Below are positions 7,251 to 40,417 of a DNA stretch of 64,000 nucleotides, piece after piece. Source of the stretch: Chloroflexota bacterium (GTDB lineage: Bacteria > Chloroflexota > Anaerolineae > VGOG01); the NCBI GenBank assembly GCA_030611885.1, contig JAUWOY010000006.1:1-64000 (forward strand), written 5' to 3'. The notes under the pieces were generated by a model. That model searched no databases. It was not told the origin of the DNA and saw only the letters and a program-made list of their open reading frames with translations. Within the stretch, counting starts at the first letter, position 1; every line of letters starts with the position of its first letter. The translations under genes and the position numbers were made by a program.

Positions 7251-7312
7251 TTCGTAGTGGCGACTTTAGTCGCTTCTTCGCACTTGCAAACGACTAAAGT
7301 CGTTACTACGAA
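7251..7312. repeat. 62-bp palindromic element, TTCGTAGT family
   Basis: TTCGTAGT and ACTACGAA ends enclose CGACTTTAGTCG and CGACTAAAGTCG. A second copy of equal length lies at 40356-40417, and an 82-bp variant occurs twice around mvhD. Non-coding; probably a REP or miniature element. Confidence 0.8.
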
Positions 7313-9233: not shown

Positions 9234-10523
9234 ATGACCCAACCACGAAACGTCGTCGTCGCCCAATCGGGCGGGCCGCCGCCGGTGATCAACAACTCGC
9301 TGCGGGGCGTGGTGGAGACCTGCCGCGCCATGCCCGACGAGTTCGGCACGGTTTACGCTGGCTGGCACGGCATCGAAGGGGTGCTGAAAGAGGAATTGCT
9401 CGACCTCTCCGCCCAGCCGGCGGAAGAGATCTGCTTGCTGCGCACCACCCCCGCCGCCGGCGCCATCGGCACCTGCCGCTACAAGCTGAAGGCTCATCAA
9501 CAGGAGGATTTTGAGCGGGTGATCGAGGTCTTCCGCGCTCACAACGTCGGCTACTTCTTCTACATCGGCGGCAACGACTCGATGGACACGGCCCACAAGA
9601 TATCGCTGTTGGCCCAGGAGCGGGGCCTGGAGCTCATCGCCACCGGCGTACCCAAAACCATAGACAACGACGTGGGTGATAGCGAATTCAAGCTGATAGA
9701 TCACACCCCCGGCTACGGCTCGGTGGCCCGCTACTGGGCGCTCAATGTCCAGAACGCCGATCAGGAAAACGCCGGCTCCTGTCCGTCCGATGCGGTGTTG
9801 GTGTTGCAGGCCATGGGCCGCAAGATCGGCTTCATTCCGGCCGCCGCTCGCCTGGCCGATCCGGACAGGGAGATGCCGCTGCTTATCTTCATGCGGGAGT
9901 CGGGCCTGACCCTGGAGGAGTTGGCCGATGGCGTGAACGATGTGCTCAGGGAACGCGGCCGCGCGCTGGTGGTGATAAGCGAGGGATTCGACGTTGGCAC
10001 CATCGGCGAGCGAAAGGACGCCTTCGGCCATACCATGTTCTCCTCCAGCCAGATGACGGTCGAGCAAATCGTGGTGAACTATCTGAACGAGGTGGGTCTG
10101 GCGGCCCGTGGGTCGGCGCGCGGCAACGTGTCAGGCACCGACCAGCGTCACAACATGATCTACGCCTCCAGCGTTGACCTGGAGGAAGCTTACAAGGTCG
10201 GGCAAAAGGCCGCGCTGATAGCCTTCGAGGAAGGTTCGGGCTTCATGGCCACCATCTTGCGAGATCCGGGCGTTTTCTACTATGTTCGCTACGACAAGGT
10301 GCCGCTGGAAGTAGTCGCCAACTCCGAACGGGCCTTTCCCGAAAGCTGGATCGCGTCCAGTCGAGTGGACGTCACCGACGACTTCGTGCGCTATGCTCGC
10401 CCCCTAATCGGCGACGACTGGCCGGCCATCCCGCTGATTGACGGCCGGCAGCGGTTTGCCCGCCTCCAGCCCATCTTCGCCGAAAAGAGGCTGCCTGCCT
10501 ACGTACTGCAGGCGTACCGATAG
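9234..10523 (+). CDS. pfp: 6-phosphofructokinase, PPi-dependent type
   Basis: It phosphorylates fructose 6-phosphate in glycolysis, probably reversibly with pyrophosphate. The 429-residue protein has GGNDSMDT at residues 112-119, where Asp rather than Gly follows the third position. It has PKTIDND at 140-146, where Lys replaces the Gly of ATP enzymes. Both are markers of PPi-PFK. The N-terminal VVAQSGGPPPVIN binds phosphoryl donor. GAGGAGGCA precedes the ATG. Its TAG stop lies in the 8-bp target duplication of a miniature element. Donor choice is inferred from these residues. Confidence 0.9.
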   Translation: MTQPRNVVVAQSGGPPPVINNSLRGVVETCRAMPDEFGTVYAGWHGIEGVLKEELLDLSAQPAEEICLLRTTPAAGAIGTCRYKLKAHQQEDFERVIEVFRAHNVGYFFYIGGNDSMDTAHKISLLAQERGLELIATGVPKTIDNDVGDSEFKLIDHTPGYGSVARYWALNVQNADQENAGSCPSDAVLVLQAMGRKIGFIPAAARLADPDREMPLLIFMRESGLTLEELADGVNDVLRERGRALVVISEGFDVGTIGERKDAFGHTMFSSSQMTVEQIVVNYLNEVGLAARGSARGNVSGTDQRHNMIYASSVDLEEAYKVGQKAALIAFEEGSGFMATILRDPGVFYYVRYDKVPLEVVANSERAFPESWIASSRVDVTDDFVRYARPLIGDDWPAIPLIDGRQRFARLQPIFAEKRLPAYVLQAYR

Positions 10524-10524
10524 C

Positions 10525-10678
10525 GCATGCGTTCAGGAGGTAGGCCAAACGTCGGTTGAGTAGCCCCGAAGGGGGCGTATCGAAACCACGTTTGGCCGCC
10601 TCCCCGTGCGATCACTTGGTTTCGATACGACCTGTGGTCTACTCAACCGGCGTGATCGCACTGAGGCTGAGCGCTTAC
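10525..10678. mobile_element. 154-bp miniature element (copy 1), at pfp stop
   Basis: Terminal repeats GCATGCGTTCAG and the complement of CTGAGCGCTTAC bound a 154-bp element. It is flanked by an 8-bp duplication CCGATAGC (10517-10524 and 10679-10686) that contains the pfp TAG stop. The interior has two hairpins with GGTTGAGTAG and GTATCGAAACC motifs. A nearly identical copy of the same length lies at 46721-46874. No transposase is encoded, so it would need a helper. Confidence 0.85.
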
Positions 10679-10704
10679 CCGATAGCGCGCCAATGGGAGG
10701 GATG

Positions 10705-11595
10705 ATGGATCAAGGACCAGCCAGCGTTGACATCGCTGTGATCGGCCATTTTGCTAAAGATAAGATTATCGTCCGGGGGGAGGAACGGGTCTCCTCAGGC
10801 GGTTCGGTCTACTACGGGGGCATTGCCCTGCGGCGGATGGGGCTTCAGGTGGCGGTCATCACCCGCCTGAGGCGAGACGACTTTGGGCTGCTCGATGAGC
10901 TGAAGGATGAGGGCATCCTGGTCTTCGCCCAGCCGGCAAAGCAGACTTCGGGGATAGAGAACACTTACTTCACCGAGGACATGGACCGGCGGCGGTGCAA
11001 ACCCCTGGGCTTCGCCGGGCCGTTTCGCAGCGAAGACCTGCCCGACATCCAGGCCAAGACCTTTCTCGTCGGCCCCATCATGGCTGGCGAAGTGGACATT
11101 CCTCTGATCAGGATGCTATCATCAAGGGGCACCGTGGCTCTGGACGCCCAGGGTTTCGTCCGCGTGCGAGAGGGGGACGGTCTGGTGTTCAGGGATTGGC
11201 CGCAGAAGCGAGAGGGGCTGGCGTTGGTGGACGTGCTCAAAGTGGACACCGCCGAGGCCGAAGTGCTGACCGGCCAGACCGACGTGCGCCAGGCGATGCG
11301 GGAGTTGGCTGCCTGCGGCCCCAGCGAGATCATGCTGACCCGGCCTCAGGGCGTGCTGGTCTACGTGGGCGGAGAGTATCACCAGGCCCCCTTCAATCCC
11401 AGGGTGGTGAGGGGACGCACCGGGCGGGGCGATACCTGCTTCGCCGGCTATCTGGGCCGGCGGCTGACCGCCGATCCTGAGGAGGCCTGCCGCTTTGCAG
11501 CAGCGATGGCCTCGCTCAAGCTGGAACAGCCCGGACCATTCCGGGGCAGCGTCCCAGATGTAGAAAGCGAGTTGACAAGCGAGGGAGAAAGTTGA
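10705..11595 (+). CDS. PfkB-family carbohydrate/nucleoside kinase
   Basis: This ribokinase-fold protein of 296 residues starts VDIAVIGHFAKDKI. It has the early SSGGSVYYGGIALRRMG motif, and the C-terminal PfkB signature as RTGRGDTCFAGYL, with catalytic Asp in GRGD. The usual DTTGAGD is altered to GRTGRGDT. The substrate is not deducible; inositol, ribose, fructose and nucleosides are all known in this family. ATG 10705 is placed after GGGAGG; ATG 10693 and 10702 are in frame. It overlaps the phosphate transporter gene by 4 bp (TTGA), so the two are co-translated. Confidence 0.8.
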   Translation: MDQGPASVDIAVIGHFAKDKIIVRGEERVSSGGSVYYGGIALRRMGLQVAVITRLRRDDFGLLDELKDEGILVFAQPAKQTSGIENTYFTEDMDRRRCKPLGFAGPFRSEDLPDIQAKTFLVGPIMAGEVDIPLIRMLSSRGTVALDAQGFVRVREGDGLVFRDWPQKREGLALVDVLKVDTAEAEVLTGQTDVRQAMRELAACGPSEIMLTRPQGVLVYVGGEYHQAPFNPRVVRGRTGRGDTCFAGYLGRRLTADPEEACRFAAAMASLKLEQPGPFRGSVPDVESELTSEGES

Positions 11596-12587
11596 ATCTA
11601 CCGATTGTAGGTATCGCCATCATTGGAGTGGCACTGTTCTTCGACTTCATAAACGGCTTCCACGGCTCGAGCAACGTCGTGGCTACCATGATCTCCTCGA
11701 GAGCCATGTCAGCGCGCAAAGCCCTGGCCTTAAGCGCAGTGGCCTATTTCTGCGGTCCCTTTCTCTTCGGCGTGGCTGTAGCCACTACCATTGGACATGA
11801 GGTAGTTGACCCCCAGGCTATCACCATTGTCGTCATCTTCGCCGCTTTACTGGCAGCCATTATCTGGAATCTCGTAACCTGGTATTTTGGCATTCCTTCC
11901 AGTTCGTCCCACGCTTTGATAGGCGGATTGATTGGGGCGGTGAGCATTGATTTCGGCTTCGCCACGATCCAGATGAGGGGAATGCTCAAAGTGATAGCCG
12001 CTCTCTTCATATCGCCAATCCTGGGTTTGGTAGTAGGGTATCTATTGATGAAGTTGGTGCTCTTCCTGGCTCGCGGGGCCTCGCCTCGGATCAACTGGTT
12101 CTTCAAGCGCGCGCAGATCATAACTTCCCTGGCGCTGGCCTTGAGCCACGGCGCCAACGATGCCCAGAAGACCATGGGAATCATCGCTATGGCCCTGGTT
12201 ACCATAGGCTATTCTTCGGAGTTCAGCGTGCCCTGGTGGGTGGTGGTCCTTTGTGCGGGGGCTATGTCCCTGGGGACAGCTTTTGGGGGTTGGCGGATAA
12301 TAAGAACTTTGGGGGGCAAATTCTACAAGATCAGGCCGGTGCATGGGTTCACGGCCCAGATCGCTTCGGCCTGCATTATCTTTGGGGCGGCTTTCCTGGG
12401 CGGGCCTGTGAGCACCACCCACGTTGTTAGTTCGGCCATCCTGGGCGTGGGCTCGGCCGAGCGCGTCTCCCGGGTGCGCTGGAACGTGGTGGGCAACATC
12501 GTTGCCGCCTGGGTGCTCACCATTCCCGCTTCCGCCCTGCTGGCGGCTTTGTTTCACTTGGTGATACATCTACTTTCGCAGTCATAA
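11592..12587 (+). CDS. pit: PiT-family inorganic phosphate transporter
   Basis: This 331-residue polytopic membrane protein has the duplicated PiT motifs: FDFINGFHGSSNVVAT near the N-terminus and SHGANDAQKTMGI at about residue 190. It also has the GIPSSSSHALIGG and GGPVSTTHVV pair. It imports phosphate (as metal phosphate) driven by H+ or Na+. The TTG start at 11592 has GAGGGAGAAAG upstream and overlaps the PfkB stop. A DUF47 protein follows 17 bp later, the usual partner of PiT transporters. Confidence 0.95.
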   Translation: MNLPIVGIAIIGVALFFDFINGFHGSSNVVATMISSRAMSARKALALSAVAYFCGPFLFGVAVATTIGHEVVDPQAITIVVIFAALLAAIIWNLVTWYFGIPSSSSHALIGGLIGAVSIDFGFATIQMRGMLKVIAALFISPILGLVVGYLLMKLVLFLARGASPRINWFFKRAQIITSLALALSHGANDAQKTMGIIAMALVTIGYSSEFSVPWWVVVLCAGAMSLGTAFGGWRIIRTLGGKFYKIRPVHGFTAQIASACIIFGAAFLGGPVSTTHVVSSAILGVGSAERVSRVRWNVVGNIVAAWVLTIPASALLAALFHLVIHLLSQS

Positions 12588-32246: not shown

Positions 32247-34115
32247 ATGCCAGCAAATAGCAAGCTAGGACGAAACGACCCCTGTTGGTGCGGCAGCGGC
32301 AAGAAGTACAAACACTGCCACATGCGCCAGGATCAGGCAGAAGGGGTAGAACCCGCGGCCGCCTCCGCGCTGGCCGCAATTGCCCCTCTGCCGACGGAGC
32401 CGGCTGCACCCGAACCGCCGCCAGTCCCGCCGGAAATCGAGGCAGCGAACACCCGCTGGGAGCAGTTCGAAGCCGCCGACCTGGAGGGCGAGGTGGCGCT
32501 CTTTCTGGAAACCCTGGCCTCCGGGGAGATGGTCCGGGAGGAAGCCTACGAGATGCTGCAGGGCATCCGTGACAAAACTGACCTGCGTCGCGACCCGCAG
32601 GCCCGCGCCCGCTACGCCGAACTGGTCGAACGGCTGCGCCAGGATGCGCCCGACCTGTATCGCCACGACCGGCCGTACTACCACGAGAACCTGATCAACG
32701 ACGCCATCGCCGACGGTCGCTGGGAGGCCATCCCCGACCTCGTCGCCGGCTTTGCCGAAGCGCCGGTGGAGCGGGGCATTGATATCTTCTTCCGCCTCAT
32801 TGGCCGACTGATGTACCACGGTCAGACCGAGCCTTTGATCAACACCATAAAGCAGATGTGGTCGGGCGTGTTGGATTCCGTGGCTTCCGACAAACTTATG
32901 CCCTGGACCAGCGACGAGTTGGGCGGCGAATTCTTGCTGGTGGCCTCTTACCAGTACATGGAAACGGCGGAAACGCCACGCGCCGACGATCCGGCTCTAC
33001 TCGAAGTCACAGCTCCCTATGGCACATTCAACACCGAGTGGCTGGAACAGGCCGTCCGGTGTCTGTCCGCGCCATCCCCCTCCCCCTGGCAGCGAGCCGA
33101 CTTCGGCCAGGCGGTGGATGCCGAGCAGTGGGCCGACGACCTCGGCGTCCTGCTGTTCGAGTTCATGGCCGATCAGCGCCGTCGCACCGGGATGCCCTTC
33201 AGCAAGAGCGAACTGGCGCGGCAGCAGCTATTTGGGTTGCTGCACCAGCAGTTTGCCGAGCCGGAGGAGACGGGCGGCGAGGGGCGGATCCGGGCGAAGA
33301 AGCGAGCTCGCCGACAGCCCGTCGTGCAGCCATCCTCGTCGCTGGTGCCCCGCTATGCCTCGTCGGATCGGCACCTGGTCGGGCTGTTTGGCTTCCTCAG
33401 CGCTCAACCTTACAAGGCAGCGGCCCTGACCGAGCTGTTGCCGGCCTACCTGCATTTCCTGGCCCGCCTGGGGCTGATCCATCCCACCGAGATGGACACC
33501 GCGCTGGGGAGCCTGCGCCCGCTGGCCGGCCACATGCGGACGGCGTTGGATAGCTACGGGGCCGACATCGTGGCGGTGCAGGCGGTGGAAGCAGCCTGGT
33601 CGGAGCCGGCGCTGGCCGCGCTGCGCGATGATCCGGCGCTGGCCGAGGCTCGCGCCGCGCTCTTGCCTGAGCTTGCGCCACTGCCCCCGAAGCCTGTCGC
33701 CAAGCCCGGCGCGGTGCTGACCTACACCTTCAAGGTGACCTACCAGCGCAAGCGCAGCGTGTGGCAACTGATCGAGATCGCCGAAGATCAGACGCTGGAC
33801 GACTTGCACTACGCCATCCTGAGCGCGGTGGACTTCGACTCCGATCACCTGTACTCCTTCTACATGAGCGGGCGCGCCTGGGACGACACGACGGAGTACG
33901 CTTCGCCTTACGGTGAGGGACCCAGTGCAGAGGAGGTGATAATCGGCGACTTGTCGCTGCGCATGAAACAGAAGTTCCTGTACCTGTTCGACTATGGCGA
34001 CGAGCACCGCTTCGACGTGCAGTTGGTGGGTATCAATCCTGAGGCGGCAAAAGGAGACTATCCCAAACTGGTGGAGAGCCACGGCAAAGCACCGCGGCAA
34101 TATGGCGGTTGGTGA
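32247..34115 (+). CDS. SEC-C motif protein with pRiA4b ORF-3-like C-terminal domain
   Basis: This 622-residue protein has the zinc-binding SEC-C motif at the N-terminus (NDPCWCGSGKKYKHCH, about residues 10-26). A long helical middle follows. The C-terminal pRiA4b ORF-3 domain spans about 490-622, with FLYLFDYGDEHRFDVQLVGI and YPKLVESHGKAPRQYGGW. The two domains are often found in proteins of unknown function, sometimes next to mobile elements. GGAGAAA precedes the ATG. It sits inside a redox operon without obvious connection. The start of HdrCB follows 32 bp later. Confidence 0.82.
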   Translation: MPANSKLGRNDPCWCGSGKKYKHCHMRQDQAEGVEPAAASALAAIAPLPTEPAAPEPPPVPPEIEAANTRWEQFEAADLEGEVALFLETLASGEMVREEAYEMLQGIRDKTDLRRDPQARARYAELVERLRQDAPDLYRHDRPYYHENLINDAIADGRWEAIPDLVAGFAEAPVERGIDIFFRLIGRLMYHGQTEPLINTIKQMWSGVLDSVASDKLMPWTSDELGGEFLLVASYQYMETAETPRADDPALLEVTAPYGTFNTEWLEQAVRCLSAPSPSPWQRADFGQAVDAEQWADDLGVLLFEFMADQRRRTGMPFSKSELARQQLFGLLHQQFAEPEETGGEGRIRAKKRARRQPVVQPSSSLVPRYASSDRHLVGLFGFLSAQPYKAAALTELLPAYLHFLARLGLIHPTEMDTALGSLRPLAGHMRTALDSYGADIVAVQAVEAAWSEPALAALRDDPALAEARAALLPELAPLPPKPVAKPGAVLTYTFKVTYQRKRSVWQLIEIAEDQTLDDLHYAILSAVDFDSDHLYSFYMSGRAWDDTTEYASPYGEGPSAEEVIIGDLSLRMKQKFLYLFDYGDEHRFDVQLVGINPEAAKGDYPKLVESHGKAPRQYGGW

Positions 34116-34147
34116 GGAAAAGTGGGTTAGCGCGAGGAGAAACTTCT

Positions 34148-35350
34148 ATGGGTGAACTTGATGTAGTACAACTAGATACTGCTCCATCGCCAGGGATACG
34201 GGCGGCACAGCGACTGATTTCATCTTGCATCCAGTGTGGCATCTGTTCATCTACCTGTCCGACTGCGCCGGTGATGGACTACACGCCACGGCATCTGTGG
34301 CGCATGGTCGAGGCAGGCCTGACCGACGAGGTGCTCAACAGTAGTACCTTCTGGTTCTGCACCTCCTGCTACGCTTGCACCAACCAATGCCCGCGCGGCA
34401 TACACCCTGGCGAGACGATGCTTCGCCTGAAGCAGGCCGTTGCTGAGGGCGAGGGCGGCGTGATGCCGGAGAACATGGCCCGCTTCGGCAACACCGTGGT
34501 CGAGTACCACAACATCTCTGGGGAGGCCAACGACGTCCGTCTCGTCTGGATGGAGAACCTGGACGAGACAGAGCGACCGGCTGGTAGAGTAGGACGGCGG
34601 GATGCCCAGGTGCTCTATTTTATCGGCTGCGTTTCTTCGTTTTACCCGGCCAGCTACCGCATCCCTCAGGCTTTTGTGCAAATTATGGGCCGCGCAGGGG
34701 TGGATTTCACCCTGCTGGGTGGCGAAGAATGGTGTTGCGGCTACCCCCTTCTCAACGCTGGCATGGTCGAAGAGATGGCAAAAGTCGCCGAATACAACCT
34801 GAACAAAGCCCACGAACTGGGCGTTGAGCGCATTGTGATGACTTGTCCTTCCTGCTTCCATGCCTGGCACAACATCTATCCCGAATTGCTGGGACGCTCT
34901 CTGGGCATTGAAGTCGTCCCCGCAGTGCAATTCCTGGTCGAATTGATAGAGGAAAACCGCATCGAGATGGGAGTGCTGGAAAAGAAAGTGACCTACCACG
35001 ACCCCTGCGATCTGGGCCGTAAGGGGGGCATTTACGACGCACCGCGCTTCGTGCTGCAACACATCCCTGGCGTCGAGTTCATTGAGATGCGCGAACACGG
35101 CCCCAACGCGGCCTGCTGCGGCGGTGGCGGCAACCTGGAAGCCCTCGAACCGACGCTGGTCAACCTCGTAGCCGAGGCGCGCATCGGCCAGGCCAAAGAG
35201 ACCGGCGCGGAGGTCATCGCTTCTGCCTGCCAGCAATGCACGCGCACGCTGGGCAGCGCGGCGCGTCGCACCAGGACGCGCATGAGAGCGATGGACGTCG
35301 CCGAACTGGTGTGGAGCGCCATGCAGGCCCGCGGAACAGAGTTGAGCTAA
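34148..35350 (+). CDS. hdrCB: Fused HdrC-HdrB heterodisulfide-reductase-like subunit
   Basis: This 400-residue fusion has an N-terminal HdrC-like ferredoxin domain with CIQCGICSSTCP and CTSCYACTNQCPRG. Then come two HdrB-type CCG domains, with CCGYPLLNAG and CCGGGGNLEA, which bind noncubane 4Fe-4S clusters in HdrB. The partner is HdrA, encoded 22 bp downstream. In other anaerobes such units accept or donate electrons to a disulfide or similar acceptor. AGGAG lies eight bases before ATG 34148. The chain also resembles GlcF, so it may serve the GlcD dehydrogenase. Confidence 0.88.
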   Translation: MGELDVVQLDTAPSPGIRAAQRLISSCIQCGICSSTCPTAPVMDYTPRHLWRMVEAGLTDEVLNSSTFWFCTSCYACTNQCPRGIHPGETMLRLKQAVAEGEGGVMPENMARFGNTVVEYHNISGEANDVRLVWMENLDETERPAGRVGRRDAQVLYFIGCVSSFYPASYRIPQAFVQIMGRAGVDFTLLGGEEWCCGYPLLNAGMVEEMAKVAEYNLNKAHELGVERIVMTCPSCFHAWHNIYPELLGRSLGIEVVPAVQFLVELIEENRIEMGVLEKKVTYHDPCDLGRKGGIYDAPRFVLQHIPGVEFIEMREHGPNAACCGGGGNLEALEPTLVNLVAEARIGQAKETGAEVIASACQQCTRTLGSAARRTRTRMRAMDVAELVWSAMQARGTELS

Positions 35351-35372: not shown

Positions 35373-37343
35373 ATGGAAGAGAAACCAAGAATCGGCGTTT
35401 ACGTTTGTCAATGTGGTTCCAATATTGCCGGCACGGTAGACACCGAGGCCGTGCGCGCCTTCGCCGAGACGTTGCCCGGCGTGATCCTGGCCCGGTCGCC
35501 CAGGTACACCTGCTCCGATGACGGCCAGACCGACATCATGGCCGACATCGAAGAAAAGGGGCTGAACCGGGTGGTGGTTGCTGCCTGCTCCCCGCGAATG
35601 CACGAGCCGACCTTCCGTCGGACGTTGGAGGCAGCGGGTCTCAACCCCTACTACTTTGAGATGGCCAACATTCGGGAACACGCTTCCTGGGTGCACGAGC
35701 CGGGCGAAGCGATGAACCGGAAAGCCAAAGACCTGGTCGCCGCAGCGGTCTACCGGGTAGCCTGTCACCGGGAACTCTTCCCGCGCCAGTCGCCGGTGAC
35801 GCCAGCGGTATTGATCGTCGGCGGGGGCATTGCCGGCATCCAGGCAGCACTGGACGTGGCCGATACTGGCTATCAAGTGTACCTGGTGGAGCGTGATCCG
35901 TCCATCGGCGGCCACATGGCTCAACTGGACAAGACCTTTCCCACCCTCGACTGTAGCACCTGAATACTGGGGCCCAAGATGATGGATGCCGGTCGGCATC
36001 CTAACATTGAGCTTCTGACCTACAGCGAAGTGGTGGACTTTTCGGGCTACATAGGCAGCTTTCACGTGCAGGTCAAGCGCAAGCCGCGCTACGTCATCGA
36101 AGACCTCTGCACCGGCTGCGGTGCTTGCGTGGAAGCGTGTGTCTGGAAGGATCGAGTGCCCTCCAAATATGAGGCAGGGTTGGGGAAGCGCAACGCAGCC
36201 TATATTCCTTTTGTCCAGGCTGTACCGCGCAAAGCCGTCATTGATCCAGAAAGCTGCCTGTTTTTGACGCGCGGCAAGTGCAAGCAGCCGTGCGCTAAGG
36301 CCTGCGAGGCCAATGCCATTGACTTTGATCAAAAGGAGACTTACGTCGAGTTTGACGTGGGGGCAGTCATCTTGGCCACCGGCTATGACCTGTACGATCC
36401 TTCGGTGATGTCGCAATACGGCTACGGTCTTGACCCCGACGTCATCACCGCCCTCCAGTTCGAGCGCATGACCAGCCCCAGCGGTCCCACCAATGGCCAC
36501 GTGACCACTAGCGACGGCCGAGAGCCGGAGGCCATCGCGCTATTGCATTGTATCGGCAGCCGCGACGAGAATCACCTGTCCTATTGCTCCCGCGTGTGCT
36601 GCATGTACGCCCTCAAACAGGCGCACATGGCCCACGACAAGACGAACGCCCAGGTGTACCAGTTCTACATTGACATCCGGTCGGCAGGCAAGGGCTACGA
36701 GGAGTTTTACAAGCGCATTCAGGAAGAGGGCGTCCACCAGATTCGAGGTAAAGTGTCCAGCGTGAAGCGCAAAGACGGCAGGCTGATCATCCGCGCTGAA
36801 GACACGCTGATGGGCCAGTTGGTGGAAGTGCCGGTAGACCTGGTGGTGCTGATGAACGGCTGGCAGCCTGCCGAGGGGTCCAAACAAGTGGCGCAGATGT
36901 TCAACGTCAGCCGCAGTCCTGATGGCTTCTTCGCCGAGGCACACCCCAAGCTCAGGCCAGTGGAGACGAACACGGGGGGCATTTTCCTGGCTGGCGCCTG
37001 CCAAAGCCCGAAGGACATTCCCGACACGGTGGCCCAGGCCAGCGGTGCGGCGGTTCAAGCGGTGAAAATGCTGGCCAGGGGCGTAGTGGACATTGAGCCA
37101 ACGGTGGCCCACGTGATAGTCGAACGCTGCATCGGTTGCGGTGAGTGCACGCTGGTCTGTCCGTATCATGCCATTTCACTGGTCGAGGGCAAGGCCGAGG
37201 TCAATGCGGTGCTCTGCGCGGGCTGCGGCACCTGCGCTGCTACCTGCGTGTCCAAGGCCATCGTCGCTGAGCACTTTGCTGCCGAGCAATTGGTAGCCCA
37301 AGTCATCGGCATCCTGGCTCAGGAAGAACCGGTTTACGTGTGA
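35373..37343 (+). CDS. hdrA: HdrA, selenocysteine-containing flavoprotein (TGA recoded at 35961)
   Basis: Read through the TGA at 35961-35963, this is a complete 656-residue HdrA. It has an N-terminal CQCG domain, FAD motif VGGGIAGIQAALDVA, the block TFPTLDCST-U-ILGPKM with Sec at residue 197, ferredoxin motifs CTGCGACVEAC, and C-terminal CIGCGECTLVCPY plus CAGCGTCAATC. HdrA proteins have Cys or Sec at this position. Without recoding, neither half could work: the first lacks all ferredoxin domains and the second lacks FAD. A SECIS-like hairpin follows (35984-36001). HdrA is the electron-bifurcating core of Hdr complexes. SelA/B/D and tRNA-Sec must lie elsewhere. Confidence 0.92.
35984..36001 (+). 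promoter_or_regulatory. Bacterial SECIS-like hairpin in hdrA
   Basis: GGATGCC and GGCATCC form a perfect 7-bp stem with the tetraloop GGTC. The stem begins 20 nt after the TGA and the loop 27 nt after it, within the window used by bacterial SECIS elements. A G at the start of the loop is the expected SelB contact. The same stem length and loop occur in osmC at 40048. Confidence 0.8.
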
Positions 37344-37368: not shown

Positions 37369-37450
37369 GGGTGTGGCCAAAACTTGTGGTAGTGACGACT
37401 TTAGTCGTTCCAAGCGACTGAAGTCGCTACTACAGATTTTGGTCACACTC
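37369..37450. mobile_element. 82-bp miniature element left of mvhD
   Basis: GGGTGTGGCCAAAA and the complement of TTTTGGTCACACTC form the ends, flanked by a 9-bp duplication GATTGATTG (37360-37368 and 37451-37459). The core contains the CGACTTTAGTCG palindromes. An inverted copy of identical length is at 37945-38026, on the other side of mvhD. Confidence 0.8.
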
Positions 37451-37944: not shown

Positions 37945-38026
37945 GAGTGCGGCCAAAATCTGTAGTAGCGACTTCAGTCGCTTGGAACGACTAAAGTCGT
38001 TACTACCACAAGTTTTGGCCACACCC
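37945..38026. mobile_element. 82-bp miniature element right of mvhD, inverted
   Basis: Reverse complement of this segment nearly matches 37369-37450 over its full length, with a few substitutions. No clear target duplication remains here. Confidence 0.75.
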
Positions 38027-38051: not shown

Positions 38052-38474
38052 ATGAAGATTGACAAGTACGAATTCCCTGATGATCTCTATTACGACGAGG
38101 AGCACAATTGGGCCCGGGTGGAGGGCGGTATCGTCACCCAGGGGATAAGTGACTTCGGGCAGGACCTGGCTGACGAGATCGTCTATGCTGAGGTGCCCCG
38201 GGTAGGGCGCGAGGTGGAGCAGGGTAAACCCTTCATGTCCATGGAATCGGGCAAGTGGGTGGGCCGTGTCAAGGCCATCGTCAGCGGCAAGATCACCGAG
38301 GCCAACGAGGAGATCGAGTGGGAGAGCACCATCATCAACGAGGACCCATACGGCGAAGGCTGGCTGACCAGGTTCGAGGCCGCTGACCTGAGTGAGCTGG
38401 ACAGCCTGATGCGCTCCTCTGATCCCACATTCGCAGAATTCATCGCTGCCGAGCGAGAGAAGTACGACAAGTAG
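38052..38474 (+). CDS. GcvH-like lipoyl carrier protein
   Basis: This 140-residue lipoyl domain is of the glycine cleavage H type. The lipoylation site aligns as MESGKWVGRVKA, with lysine at residue 68 matching the ESVKA motif. The N-terminus has EEHNWARVEGG, the family HEWV pattern, and the C-terminal half has GEGWLTRFE. No gcvP or gcvT is near; the neighbours are Hdr/Mvh genes and a lipoate ligase. Lipoate-binding proteins of this kind (LbpA) work with sulfur-oxidising Hdr-like complexes in other bacteria, so an Hdr-linked role is plausible. The TAG stop lies in the target duplication of a 216-bp element. Confidence 0.85.
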   Translation: MKIDKYEFPDDLYYDEEHNWARVEGGIVTQGISDFGQDLADEIVYAEVPRVGREVEQGKPFMSMESGKWVGRVKAIVSGKITEANEEIEWESTIINEDPYGEGWLTRFEAADLSELDSLMRSSDPTFAEFIAAEREKYDK

Positions 38475-38721: not shown

Positions 38722-39834
38722 ATGAAACTATACAATCTGGGCCACGTGCCGTGGCTCGAATCACAACTCATTTACCACGCCCTGCCGCGCCTGGACATGG
38801 AGGGCCTGATTCTCCTGATCCCCGCCGAACCTTACGTATGTATTGGCTACCATCAGGACGTGACCCAGGAGGTAGACCTCGACTATTGCCGCGCTCACGG
38901 CATACCCGTCTTCCGGCGCGAGGTGGGCGGCGGAGCAGTCTACCTGGATGGCAACCAGCTTTTCTATCAAGTGATTCTGCACAAGGATAGCGCCCTGCCC
39001 CCCCTTCATCCCGCCCCCCTAGCCCCCCAAAGTTGGGGGGAGGGGGGGGAGGGGGGAAAGAGGGGGGGCAAAGGAGCTTTCTATCGCGCTCTGTTGGAGC
39101 CGGCAGCCGAAACCTACCGTCAGATGGGTATCGCCGCCCGTTACAAGCCCGTCAACGACATCGTCACCGCCGAGGGACGCAAGATTTCGGGCACCGGTGT
39201 GGCCGAAATCGGAGATTACCTGGTACTGGTAGGTAATATCATCATGGACTTCGATTACGAGACCATGGTTCGCGTCCTCAGGGTGCCCGATGAGAAGTAT
39301 CGCGACAAGGTCTACAAGAGCCTGCGCGAGAACCTGTCTACCATCAAACGGGAACTGGGAACAGTGCCGCCGTTGGAGGAGATCGAGGCCAGCCTGGCAG
39401 CTAACTACGAGGCGGTGTTGGGGCCGCTGGAGAGGGCTGAGCTGCCGCCGGCCGTCTACGACAAGGTGGCCGAGCTCAAGCGGACTCATACCACCGACGA
39501 GTGGCTGTACAAGCGGGGCAAGCGGCGCGAGAAATGGCAGGTTAAGATCGCCACCGGGGTGGAGGTGTCACAGCGGATGTACAAGGCTCCGGGTGGGCTG
39601 ATCAGGGCCACTGTGGAGACCAGAAAGGGACGCATCGCCGAGGTGTCCCTGAGCGGCGATTTTTTCTTTTATCCGGCTGACAAGTTGGAAGCACTGGAGG
39701 CAGTTCTTGCCGGAATGGAGCCGGGCGCGGTAGAACCGATCATTGCTGAGTTCTACCGTCGAGAGGGGATCGAATCGCCGGGGGTGACGCCGGCCGACTT
39801 CGCTAGAGTGGTGACAGGCCAGGGGGCCCCATGA
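38722..39834 (+). CDS. lplA: Lipoate-protein ligase A, with in-frame repeat insertion
   Basis: This 370-residue ligase attaches lipoate to a carrier, probably the GcvH-like protein upstream. The lipoyl-AMP motifs are FRREVGGGAVYLDG near residue 67 and KPVNDIVTAEGRKISGTG near 143. The C-terminal third (about 265-345) is the LplB-like accessory domain. Residues about 93-118 are a Gly/Pro/Lys-rich segment (APLAPQSWGEGGEGGKRGGK) coded by a G/C-tract repeat, absent from normal LplA. The frame is kept. The stop overlaps the osmC start as ATGA. Activity may persist if the insert is a surface loop. Confidence 0.87.
   Translation: MKLYNLGHVPWLESQLIYHALPRLDMEGLILLIPAEPYVCIGYHQDVTQEVDLDYCRAHGIPVFRREVGGGAVYLDGNQLFYQVILHKDSALPPLHPAPLAPQSWGEGGEGGKRGGKGAFYRALLEPAAETYRQMGIAARYKPVNDIVTAEGRKISGTGVAEIGDYLVLVGNIIMDFDYETMVRVLRVPDEKYRDKVYKSLRENLSTIKRELGTVPPLEEIEASLAANYEAVLGPLERAELPPAVYDKVAELKRTHTTDEWLYKRGKRREKWQVKIATGVEVSQRMYKAPGGLIRATVETRKGRIAEVSLSGDFFFYPADKLEALEAVLAGMEPGAVEPIIAEFYRREGIESPGVTPADFARVVTGQGAP
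38998..39074. repeat. G/C-tract palindrome inserted in lplA
   Basis: A C-tract, CCCCCCAAAGTTGGGGGG, and further G-tracts form a strong hairpin with G-rich tail. A related CCTCCCAAAGTTGGGGG is at the start of osmC (39849-39865). In both places it is read as QSWG-type peptide without breaking the frame. Confidence 0.75.
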
Positions 39835-40283
39835 GCGTGTTGGAACTTCCCTCCCAAAGTTGGGGGGGACCGAGGGGGGGCAACGTCATCACCGTGACCT
39901 ATGTCGGGGATGAACGGGCGGTGGTCGAATCCTCGGGGGGGCGGAGCTTCGTCGTTGATCAGCGGACCAAAATCTGGCGGGAAGGGGCGAAATCCTGTCC
40001 TGTCGAGCTGATCGCCGCGTCGCTGGGGGCTTGAATGGTGCTGACCATGGCTGCGGTCGCAGCCAACAAGGACATAACCCTCGATAAGCTGGAAGTCCAG
40101 GTAGAAACCCGCGTAGAAGAGGCCGGTCGCCAGCAGAAAACTGCTTTCGTCACTGCCGTTGACCTGGGCCTGGGTCTGACCGAGCGCGAGCGGAAGATCC
40201 TCTTCAACTCGGCCCGCCACTGTGAGGTGCATAAACTGCTGGGGGGTTCCATCGAGTTCAGGGAAACCTTGATTAGCACATAA
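39831..40283 (+). CDS. OsmC-family protein with selenocysteine (TGA recoded at 40032)
   Basis: Read through the TGA at 40032-40034 this is a 150-residue OsmC-like peroxide/thiol protein: VITVTYVGDERA, FVVDQRTK, PVELIAASLGA-U-MVLTM, then ITLDKLEVQVET and a C-terminal HCEVHKLL. The first redox Cys of OsmC proteins sits exactly at the TGA (consensus ALGSC). Both halves are otherwise collinear, with no missing residues. A SECIS-like hairpin with a GGTC loop follows. The first about 18 residues come from a G-rich repeat and may be dispensable. It overlaps lplA by 4 bp. An alternative is a broken gene, but the hairpin argues against this. Confidence 0.87.
40048..40065 (+). promoter_or_regulatory. 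Bacterial SECIS-like hairpin in osmC
   Basis: TGGCTGC and GCAGCCA form a perfect 7-bp stem with tetraloop GGTC. The stem starts 13 nt and the loop 20 nt after the TGA. Loop and stem length match the hdrA hairpin. Confidence 0.8.
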
Positions 40284-40355: not shown

Positions 40356-40417
40356 TTCGTAGTAGCGACTTCAGTCGCTTTGGCGTCATTGTGGACGACT
40401 GAAGTCGTCACTACGAA
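40356..40417. repeat. 62-bp palindromic element, TTCGTAGT family (copy 2)
   Basis: Same ends and length as 7251-7312, with CGACTTCAGTCG and CGACTGAAGTCG inside. It lies between osmC and the acyl-CoA dehydrogenase gene; nothing else is evident in 40284-40442. Confidence 0.8.

What the first reader, a model, noticed from the sequence alone, without database searches (positions are those of the whole stretch)
39831..40283. OsmC-family selenoprotein with matching SECIS
The TGA at 40032 falls exactly on the first redox Cys (SLGA-U-MVLTM). The reading frame continues with the full C-terminal half, and a 7-bp stem with GGTC loop follows. OsmC proteins are thiol peroxidases, where Sec could raise reactivity. 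It is the second selenoprotein within 4 kb.
Basis: partly seen in the sequence, partly recalled or inferred. Interest (0 to 1): 0.8.

Follow-up and report, generated by a model that had tools for sequence, protein, structure and literature searches.

The report
Selenocysteine OsmC linked to lipoyl genes
An uncultured Anaerolineae bacterium builds a small OsmC-fold redox protein with selenocysteine at its reactive site, and the gene travels with a dedicated lipoic-acid carrier, a lipoate ligase and heterodisulfide-reductase-like genes, which suggests a selenium-based redox enzyme driven by lipoic acid.

Summary
The frame 39831-40283 has a single in-frame TGA (40032-40034), on the first redox Cys of an OsmC protein (PF02566). 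It is followed by a 7-bp stem (40048-40054/40059-40065) with a GGTC loop. Nineteen relatives (14 in the window's class, one further Anaerolineaceae record, four in deltaproteobacterial lineages) carry a TGA at the same codon; one carries Cys. The stem covaries at synonymous sites. selA, selB and selD are in the genome. tRNA-Sec is missing from this assembly (93% complete) but present in most relatives, one of the same family included. So it is a selenoprotein.

OsmC-like selenoproteins have been known since 2005 (UxxT motif). This clade has UxxL plus a near-invariant extra Cys and scores far below the NCBIfam OsmC_like_Se cut-off, so I call it a new variant. New here is its gene context. It overlaps lplA (ATGA), and across two or more phyla it sits beside lplA, a GcvH paralogue (signature ESGKWxG, not ESVK) and Hdr-like genes. 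The window's genome has one GcvH, this one, and no detectable glycine decarboxylase. Best mechanism: a lipoyl-dependent Sec peroxidase or thiol oxidoreductase (inferred), parallel to OsmC plus the H protein in Trichomonas hydrogenosomes.

The parts
39831..40283 (+). OsmC-family selenoprotein gene, 150 aa, Sec at codon 68; other conserved redox residues Cys56 and Cys131
   Evidence: translation with TGA=U; PF02566 9.6e-13; alignment with 15 relatives
40032..40034 (+). UGA codon read as selenocysteine
   Evidence: aligned TGA in 19 of 20 clade relatives, TGC (Cys) in the other
40048..40065 (+). SECIS apical hairpin: 7-bp stem, GGUC loop, 20 nt after the UGA
   Evidence: fold; covariation; synonymous null
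38722..39834 (+). lplA-like lipoate-protein ligase; its TGA stop overlaps the osmC ATG (ATGA), suggesting translational coupling
   Evidence: PF21948 1.1e-34; sequence at 39831-39834; neighbour of Sec-osmC in 8 of 15 class loci
38052..38474 (+). GcvH-like lipoyl carrier with ESGKWVGR signature and no Cys
   Evidence: PF01597 2.4e-34; alignment of nine linked paralogues with a canonical GcvH; only GcvH found in the genome
37457..37897 (+). MvhD/FlpD-like electron-transfer subunit
   Evidence: PF02662 1.5e-52
35373..37343 (+). HdrA-like selenoprotein, Sec (TGA) at 35961-35963, CxxU
   Evidence: NF040770 837 bits, below the cut-off of 1100; in-frame TGA; GGUC hairpin downstream
34109..35350 (+). 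HdrBC-like protein: 4Fe-4S plus two CCG domains
   Evidence: PF02754 and PF13183

Best explanation
The gene encodes a real selenoprotein (shown by comparison): UGA 40032 is decoded as Sec, presumably by SelB bound to the GGUC hairpin 20 nt downstream. The protein is an OsmC-fold redox enzyme in which Sec68 replaces the peroxidatic Cys and Cys131 is the likely resolving partner. The most likely mechanism (inferred): Sec68 attacks an oxidised substrate, probably a hydroperoxide; the selenenic acid is resolved by Cys131; the resulting Se-S bond is reduced by the dihydrolipoyl arm of the neighbouring GcvH-like carrier. That carrier is lipoylated by the LplA-like ligase and recharged by the Hdr-like proteins encoded in the same cluster, or by the genome's dihydrolipoyl dehydrogenase. 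My confidence that it is a selenoprotein is about 0.96; the figure below is for the whole mechanism.
For: Sec: conserved TGA in 19 relatives and one Cys sister; purifying selection in frame after the TGA (pN 0.02-0.07 against pS 0.17-0.45); covarying hairpin; selA, selB, selD. Fold: PF02566; the AlphaFold model matches OsmC/Ohr structures including Ohr with dihydrolipoamide, 6ebg. Lipoyl link: lplA, GcvH or Hdr-like neighbours in 11 of 15 class loci and in all five further Sec loci from genome contigs; linked GcvH paralogues share ESGKWxG across phyla; the window's genome has no detectable GcvP and a single GcvH. Precedents: Ohr is reduced by lipoylated proteins (PMC5962072); [quoted passage not shown]
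Against: tRNA-Sec was not found in this assembly. No biochemistry is known to me for this clade. The catalytic Arg of Ohr was not identified in it. Some OsmC-fold proteins have no thiol peroxidase activity (PMC4069020). Gene proximity does not prove electron transfer, and two class loci (L052, L059) show no such neighbours within the stretch read. L090 and L091 have only distant LplA and GcvH relatives.
Confidence: 0.5

Rival explanations
1. A Sec-dependent sulfur- or thiol-transfer partner: Sec68 moves a persulfide or electrons between the lipoyl carrier and the HdrBC CCG site in an sHdr-like catabolic pathway, rather than detoxifying peroxides.
For: HdrBC-like CCG proteins, HdrA and MvhD recur beside the gene. 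In the sHdr system a GcvH-like lipoate-binding protein works with Hdr-like proteins and is proposed to present sulfur (PMC6067878). The organisms are probably anaerobes (inference).
Against: The linked GcvH lacks the two conserved cysteines of LbpA. No DsrE, TusA or rhodanese genes were noticed beside it, though not every neighbour was scanned. No OsmC is mentioned in the sHdr paper.
Confidence: 0.3
2. The TGA is a true stop and the downstream ATG (40035) starts a second gene, or the gene is a pseudogene.
For: In the window and in 10 of the other 18 Sec sequences compared, ATG directly follows the TGA; tRNA-Sec is missing from the assembly.
Against: Eight of the 19 Sec sequences compared have ATC, ATA, ATT or GTC after the TGA, so restart at ATG is not conserved. 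The TGA is conserved over 42-60% identity, one relative has Cys, the fold spans the junction, and a covarying hairpin follows.
Confidence: 0.03
3. An ordinary member of the OsmC-like selenoprotein family described from the Sargasso Sea, with no special link to lipoate.
For: Same superfamily, Sec at the same kind of site (PMC1088965).
Against: UxxL instead of UxxT; 28.5 bits against a cut-off of 95 for NF041052; recurrent lipoyl and Hdr-like neighbours.
Confidence: 0.12

Closest known systems
OsmC-like selenoprotein (Sargasso Sea, PMC1088965; NCBIfam NF041052 OsmC_like_Se)
   Same: OsmC fold; Sec in place of the reactive Cys; bacterial SECIS downstream
   Different: UxxL, not UxxT; score far below the NCBIfam cut-off; lipoyl/Hdr gene context, for which no counterpart was found in the papers searched
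Ohr, lipoyl-dependent organic hydroperoxide reductase (PMC5962072)
   Same: Fold; reactive residue in the long central helix and a resolving Cys at the start of the last helix; the reductant of Ohr is a lipoylated protein
   Different: Sec instead of Cys; the conserved Glu sits 9 instead of 10 residues before the reactive residue (Ohr: Glu51 and Cys61, PMC5962072); catalytic Arg not identified
[quoted passage not shown]
   Same: OsmC paired with a GcvH lipoyl carrier without a full glycine cleavage system
   Different: Bacterial operon, Sec, dedicated ligase and Hdr-like genes; no dihydrolipoyl dehydrogenase in the cluster
sHdr-LbpA system (PMC6067878)
   Same: GcvH-like lipoyl carrier, dedicated lipoate ligase and Hdr/CCG proteins together
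   Different: The carrier has no Cys; no OsmC is mentioned in the sHdr paper

Membership tests
Bacterial selenoprotein | in-frame UGA aligned with Cys of homologues | tested here: met
Bacterial selenoprotein | SECIS hairpin shortly downstream with G in the loop | tested here: met
Bacterial selenoprotein | selA, selB, selD in the genome | tested here: met
Bacterial selenoprotein | tRNA-Sec in the genome | tested here: inconclusive
   absent from a 93% complete assembly; present in 12 of the 15 class relatives searched that carry the clade gene and in one same-family genome without it
OsmC superfamily PF02566 | Pfam gathering score | tested here: met
   48.9 against 27.5 bits; fold match
NCBIfam NF041052 OsmC_like_Se | curated cut-off of 95 bits | tested here: not met
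   28.5 bits
Sargasso OsmC-like selenoproteins | UxxT motif | tested here: not met
   UMVL, UMTL, UIAL and similar in all members; UxxT reported in PMC1088965
Ohr peroxidase | catalytic Arg and Glu | tested here: inconclusive
   Glu59 is invariant in alignment A2 but one residue nearer the reactive site than in Ohr; no invariant Arg in the N-terminal part of A2
Lipoyl-dependent peroxidase | reduction by a lipoylated protein | not testable with these tools
   only gene context
sHdr LbpA (for the GcvH partner) | two conserved Cys | tested here: not met
   no Cys in the window GcvH; feature from PMC6067878

The most novel reading that the evidence does not exclude
A so far undescribed anaerobic redox module in which a dedicated lipoyl carrier (GcvH with ESGKWxG), its own ligase and Hdr-type iron-sulfur proteins form an electron chain that ends in, or starts from, a selenocysteine OsmC enzyme, shared by Anaerolineae and deltaproteobacterial lineages.
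Probability: 0.4. Interest if true: 0.75.

Novelty: new variant of a known kind. Interest (0 to 1): 0.5.

Why it matters
OsmC-like selenoproteins have been listed for 20 years, and the reviews read here name no partner for them. Here conserved gene neighbours in several phyla name a likely electron donor (a dedicated lipoyl carrier) and link Hdr-type enzymes to a selenium redox protein, which makes the function directly testable. Ordinary annotation would split the gene at the TGA and lose it.

Tried and rejected
Stop-restart and pseudogene: rejected on conservation over many genomes, the non-ATG codons after the TGA in eight of 19, and in-frame purifying selection. A recoded genetic code (TGA as a general sense codon): rejected because neighbouring genes such as lplA end in TGA. 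The tRNA-Sec search by Rfam and by the tRNA of a same-family genome found nothing credible. Rfam over the window gave only two tRNAs. A phylum-wide search found no further close member. A search among relatives of the Desulfobacteraceae locus could not be centred there.

Full report
Observation. The frame 39831-40283 holds one in-frame TGA at 40032-40034 (codon 68), with no other stop until TAA. Read through, it is a 150-aa OsmC protein (PF02566, 48.9 bits). The hairpin 40048-40065 has seven pairs and a GGUC loop (folds six of them as the minimum; the seventh, U-A, is possible by sequence).

Is it selenocysteine? A search of 396 genomes of the class found 14 relatives at 42-60% identity with exactly one stop inside, always TGA; translation puts it at the same codon. 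One further member of the clade, L034 (G044), has Cys there. The genome-contig scan added five more Sec members: one Anaerolineaceae and four deltaproteobacterial MAGs, Desulfobacteraceae and Desulfosarcina included. Class loci re-found there as named records are Anaerolineae or Chloroflexi MAGs, so the window is very probably Anaerolineae. In the tree the Cys sequence pairs with a Sec sequence of the same family (G076, support 99/95) inside the Sec clade, which looks like a Sec-to-Cys replacement; the Cys gene still carries the GGUC loop, with a T-T mismatch in the stem.

The hairpin. In 14 class sequences the stem shows changes on both sides at three pairs, covariation 0.317 against a shuffled mean of 0.106 (0 of 500), and well above the slid controls. 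The best covarying pair (T-A, A-T, G-C) joins third positions of two Ala (or Ser and Ala) codons, so protein conservation does not explain it. Under synonymous recoding the paired stem alone is not rare for this peptide (8-35%), but stem plus the observed loop is (0.3-2.6% per sequence). The HdrA selenoprotein 4 kb upstream has its own 7-bp stem with the same GGUC loop.

Machinery. selA, selB and selD are over their cut-offs; selD itself contains a TGA. tRNA-Sec was not found in this assembly by Rfam or by the tRNA of a same-family genome. It was found in 12 of the 15 searched class relatives that carry the clade gene and in one same-family genome, and ARAGORN reads anticodon TCA in the four checked. 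An assembly gap is the simplest reading.

Protein. Sec68 is in the long helix 57-79 and Cys131 lies at the start of the last helix, as in Ohr/OsmC. Cys56 is conserved in all members but L094 (Ser). The model (pLDDT 81.6) matches OsmC-like 3cje best and Ohr with dihydrolipoamide (6ebg) among others. It misses the NCBIfam OsmC_like_Se cut-off by far and has UxxL where the Sargasso family has UxxT.

Context. The lplA stop overlaps the osmC start (ATGA). In 15 class loci, an lplA homologue lies next to the gene in eight, GcvH in four, Hdr-like genes in three; 11 of 15 have at least one. All five further Sec loci have Hdr-like and LplA-like genes near, four also GcvH. The linked GcvH paralogues share ESGKW(V/L)G, unlike the ESVK of a GcvH beside GcvP. 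Several relatives have both a GcvP-linked GcvH and this second one; the window's genome shows only this one and no GcvP. A dihydrolipoyl dehydrogenase exists elsewhere in the genome.

Mechanism. [quoted passage not shown] The bacterial cluster fits that scheme with Sec, a dedicated carrier and ligase. Shown here: Sec by comparison, fold, gene linkage. Inferred: lipoyl as donor, hydroperoxide as substrate, Hdr-like proteins as recharger. The main rival is thiol or sulfur transfer in an sHdr-like pathway.

Limits. Most or all relatives are MAGs; no expression or biochemical data were available. Not every neighbour was family-scanned; several cluster members are named by similarity to window proteins only. 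The paper library lacks most subscription journals, so absence of a report of this cluster there is weak evidence of novelty.

Noticed in passing
35961-35963: HdrA selenoprotein (CSTU) with a GGUC-loop hairpin, in an HdrBC-HdrA-MvhD cluster upstream of the osmC.
   Followed up: partly
7254-7309, 37389-37433, 37962-38006, 40359-40414: Intergenic inverted-repeat element (GTAGTRNCGACTTYAGTCGYT and its complement) in four copies, three of them inside or at the end of this cluster; 0 expected by chance.
   Followed up: partly
L018 (G000:C68:11720-12652): selD carries an in-frame TGA, so SelD looks like a selenoprotein too.
   Followed up: no
L034 / L095: Cys form of the clade that keeps the GGUC hairpin loop, probably a Sec-to-Cys change.
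   Followed up: partly
L063:9445-11955, L090:3412-6718, L091:4305-6300: By eye, acoX-like and lipoyl-domain or 2-oxoacid dehydrogenase-like genes lie near some clade members.
   Followed up: no
L087:1860-4726 and 10364-11767, L094:3205-4584: FAD-linked oxidases (Pfam-confirmed for L087:10364-11767, the others by eye) and a cytochrome c7/c3-type protein (L087:8041-9780) lie near the gene in deltaproteobacterial loci.
   Followed up: partly
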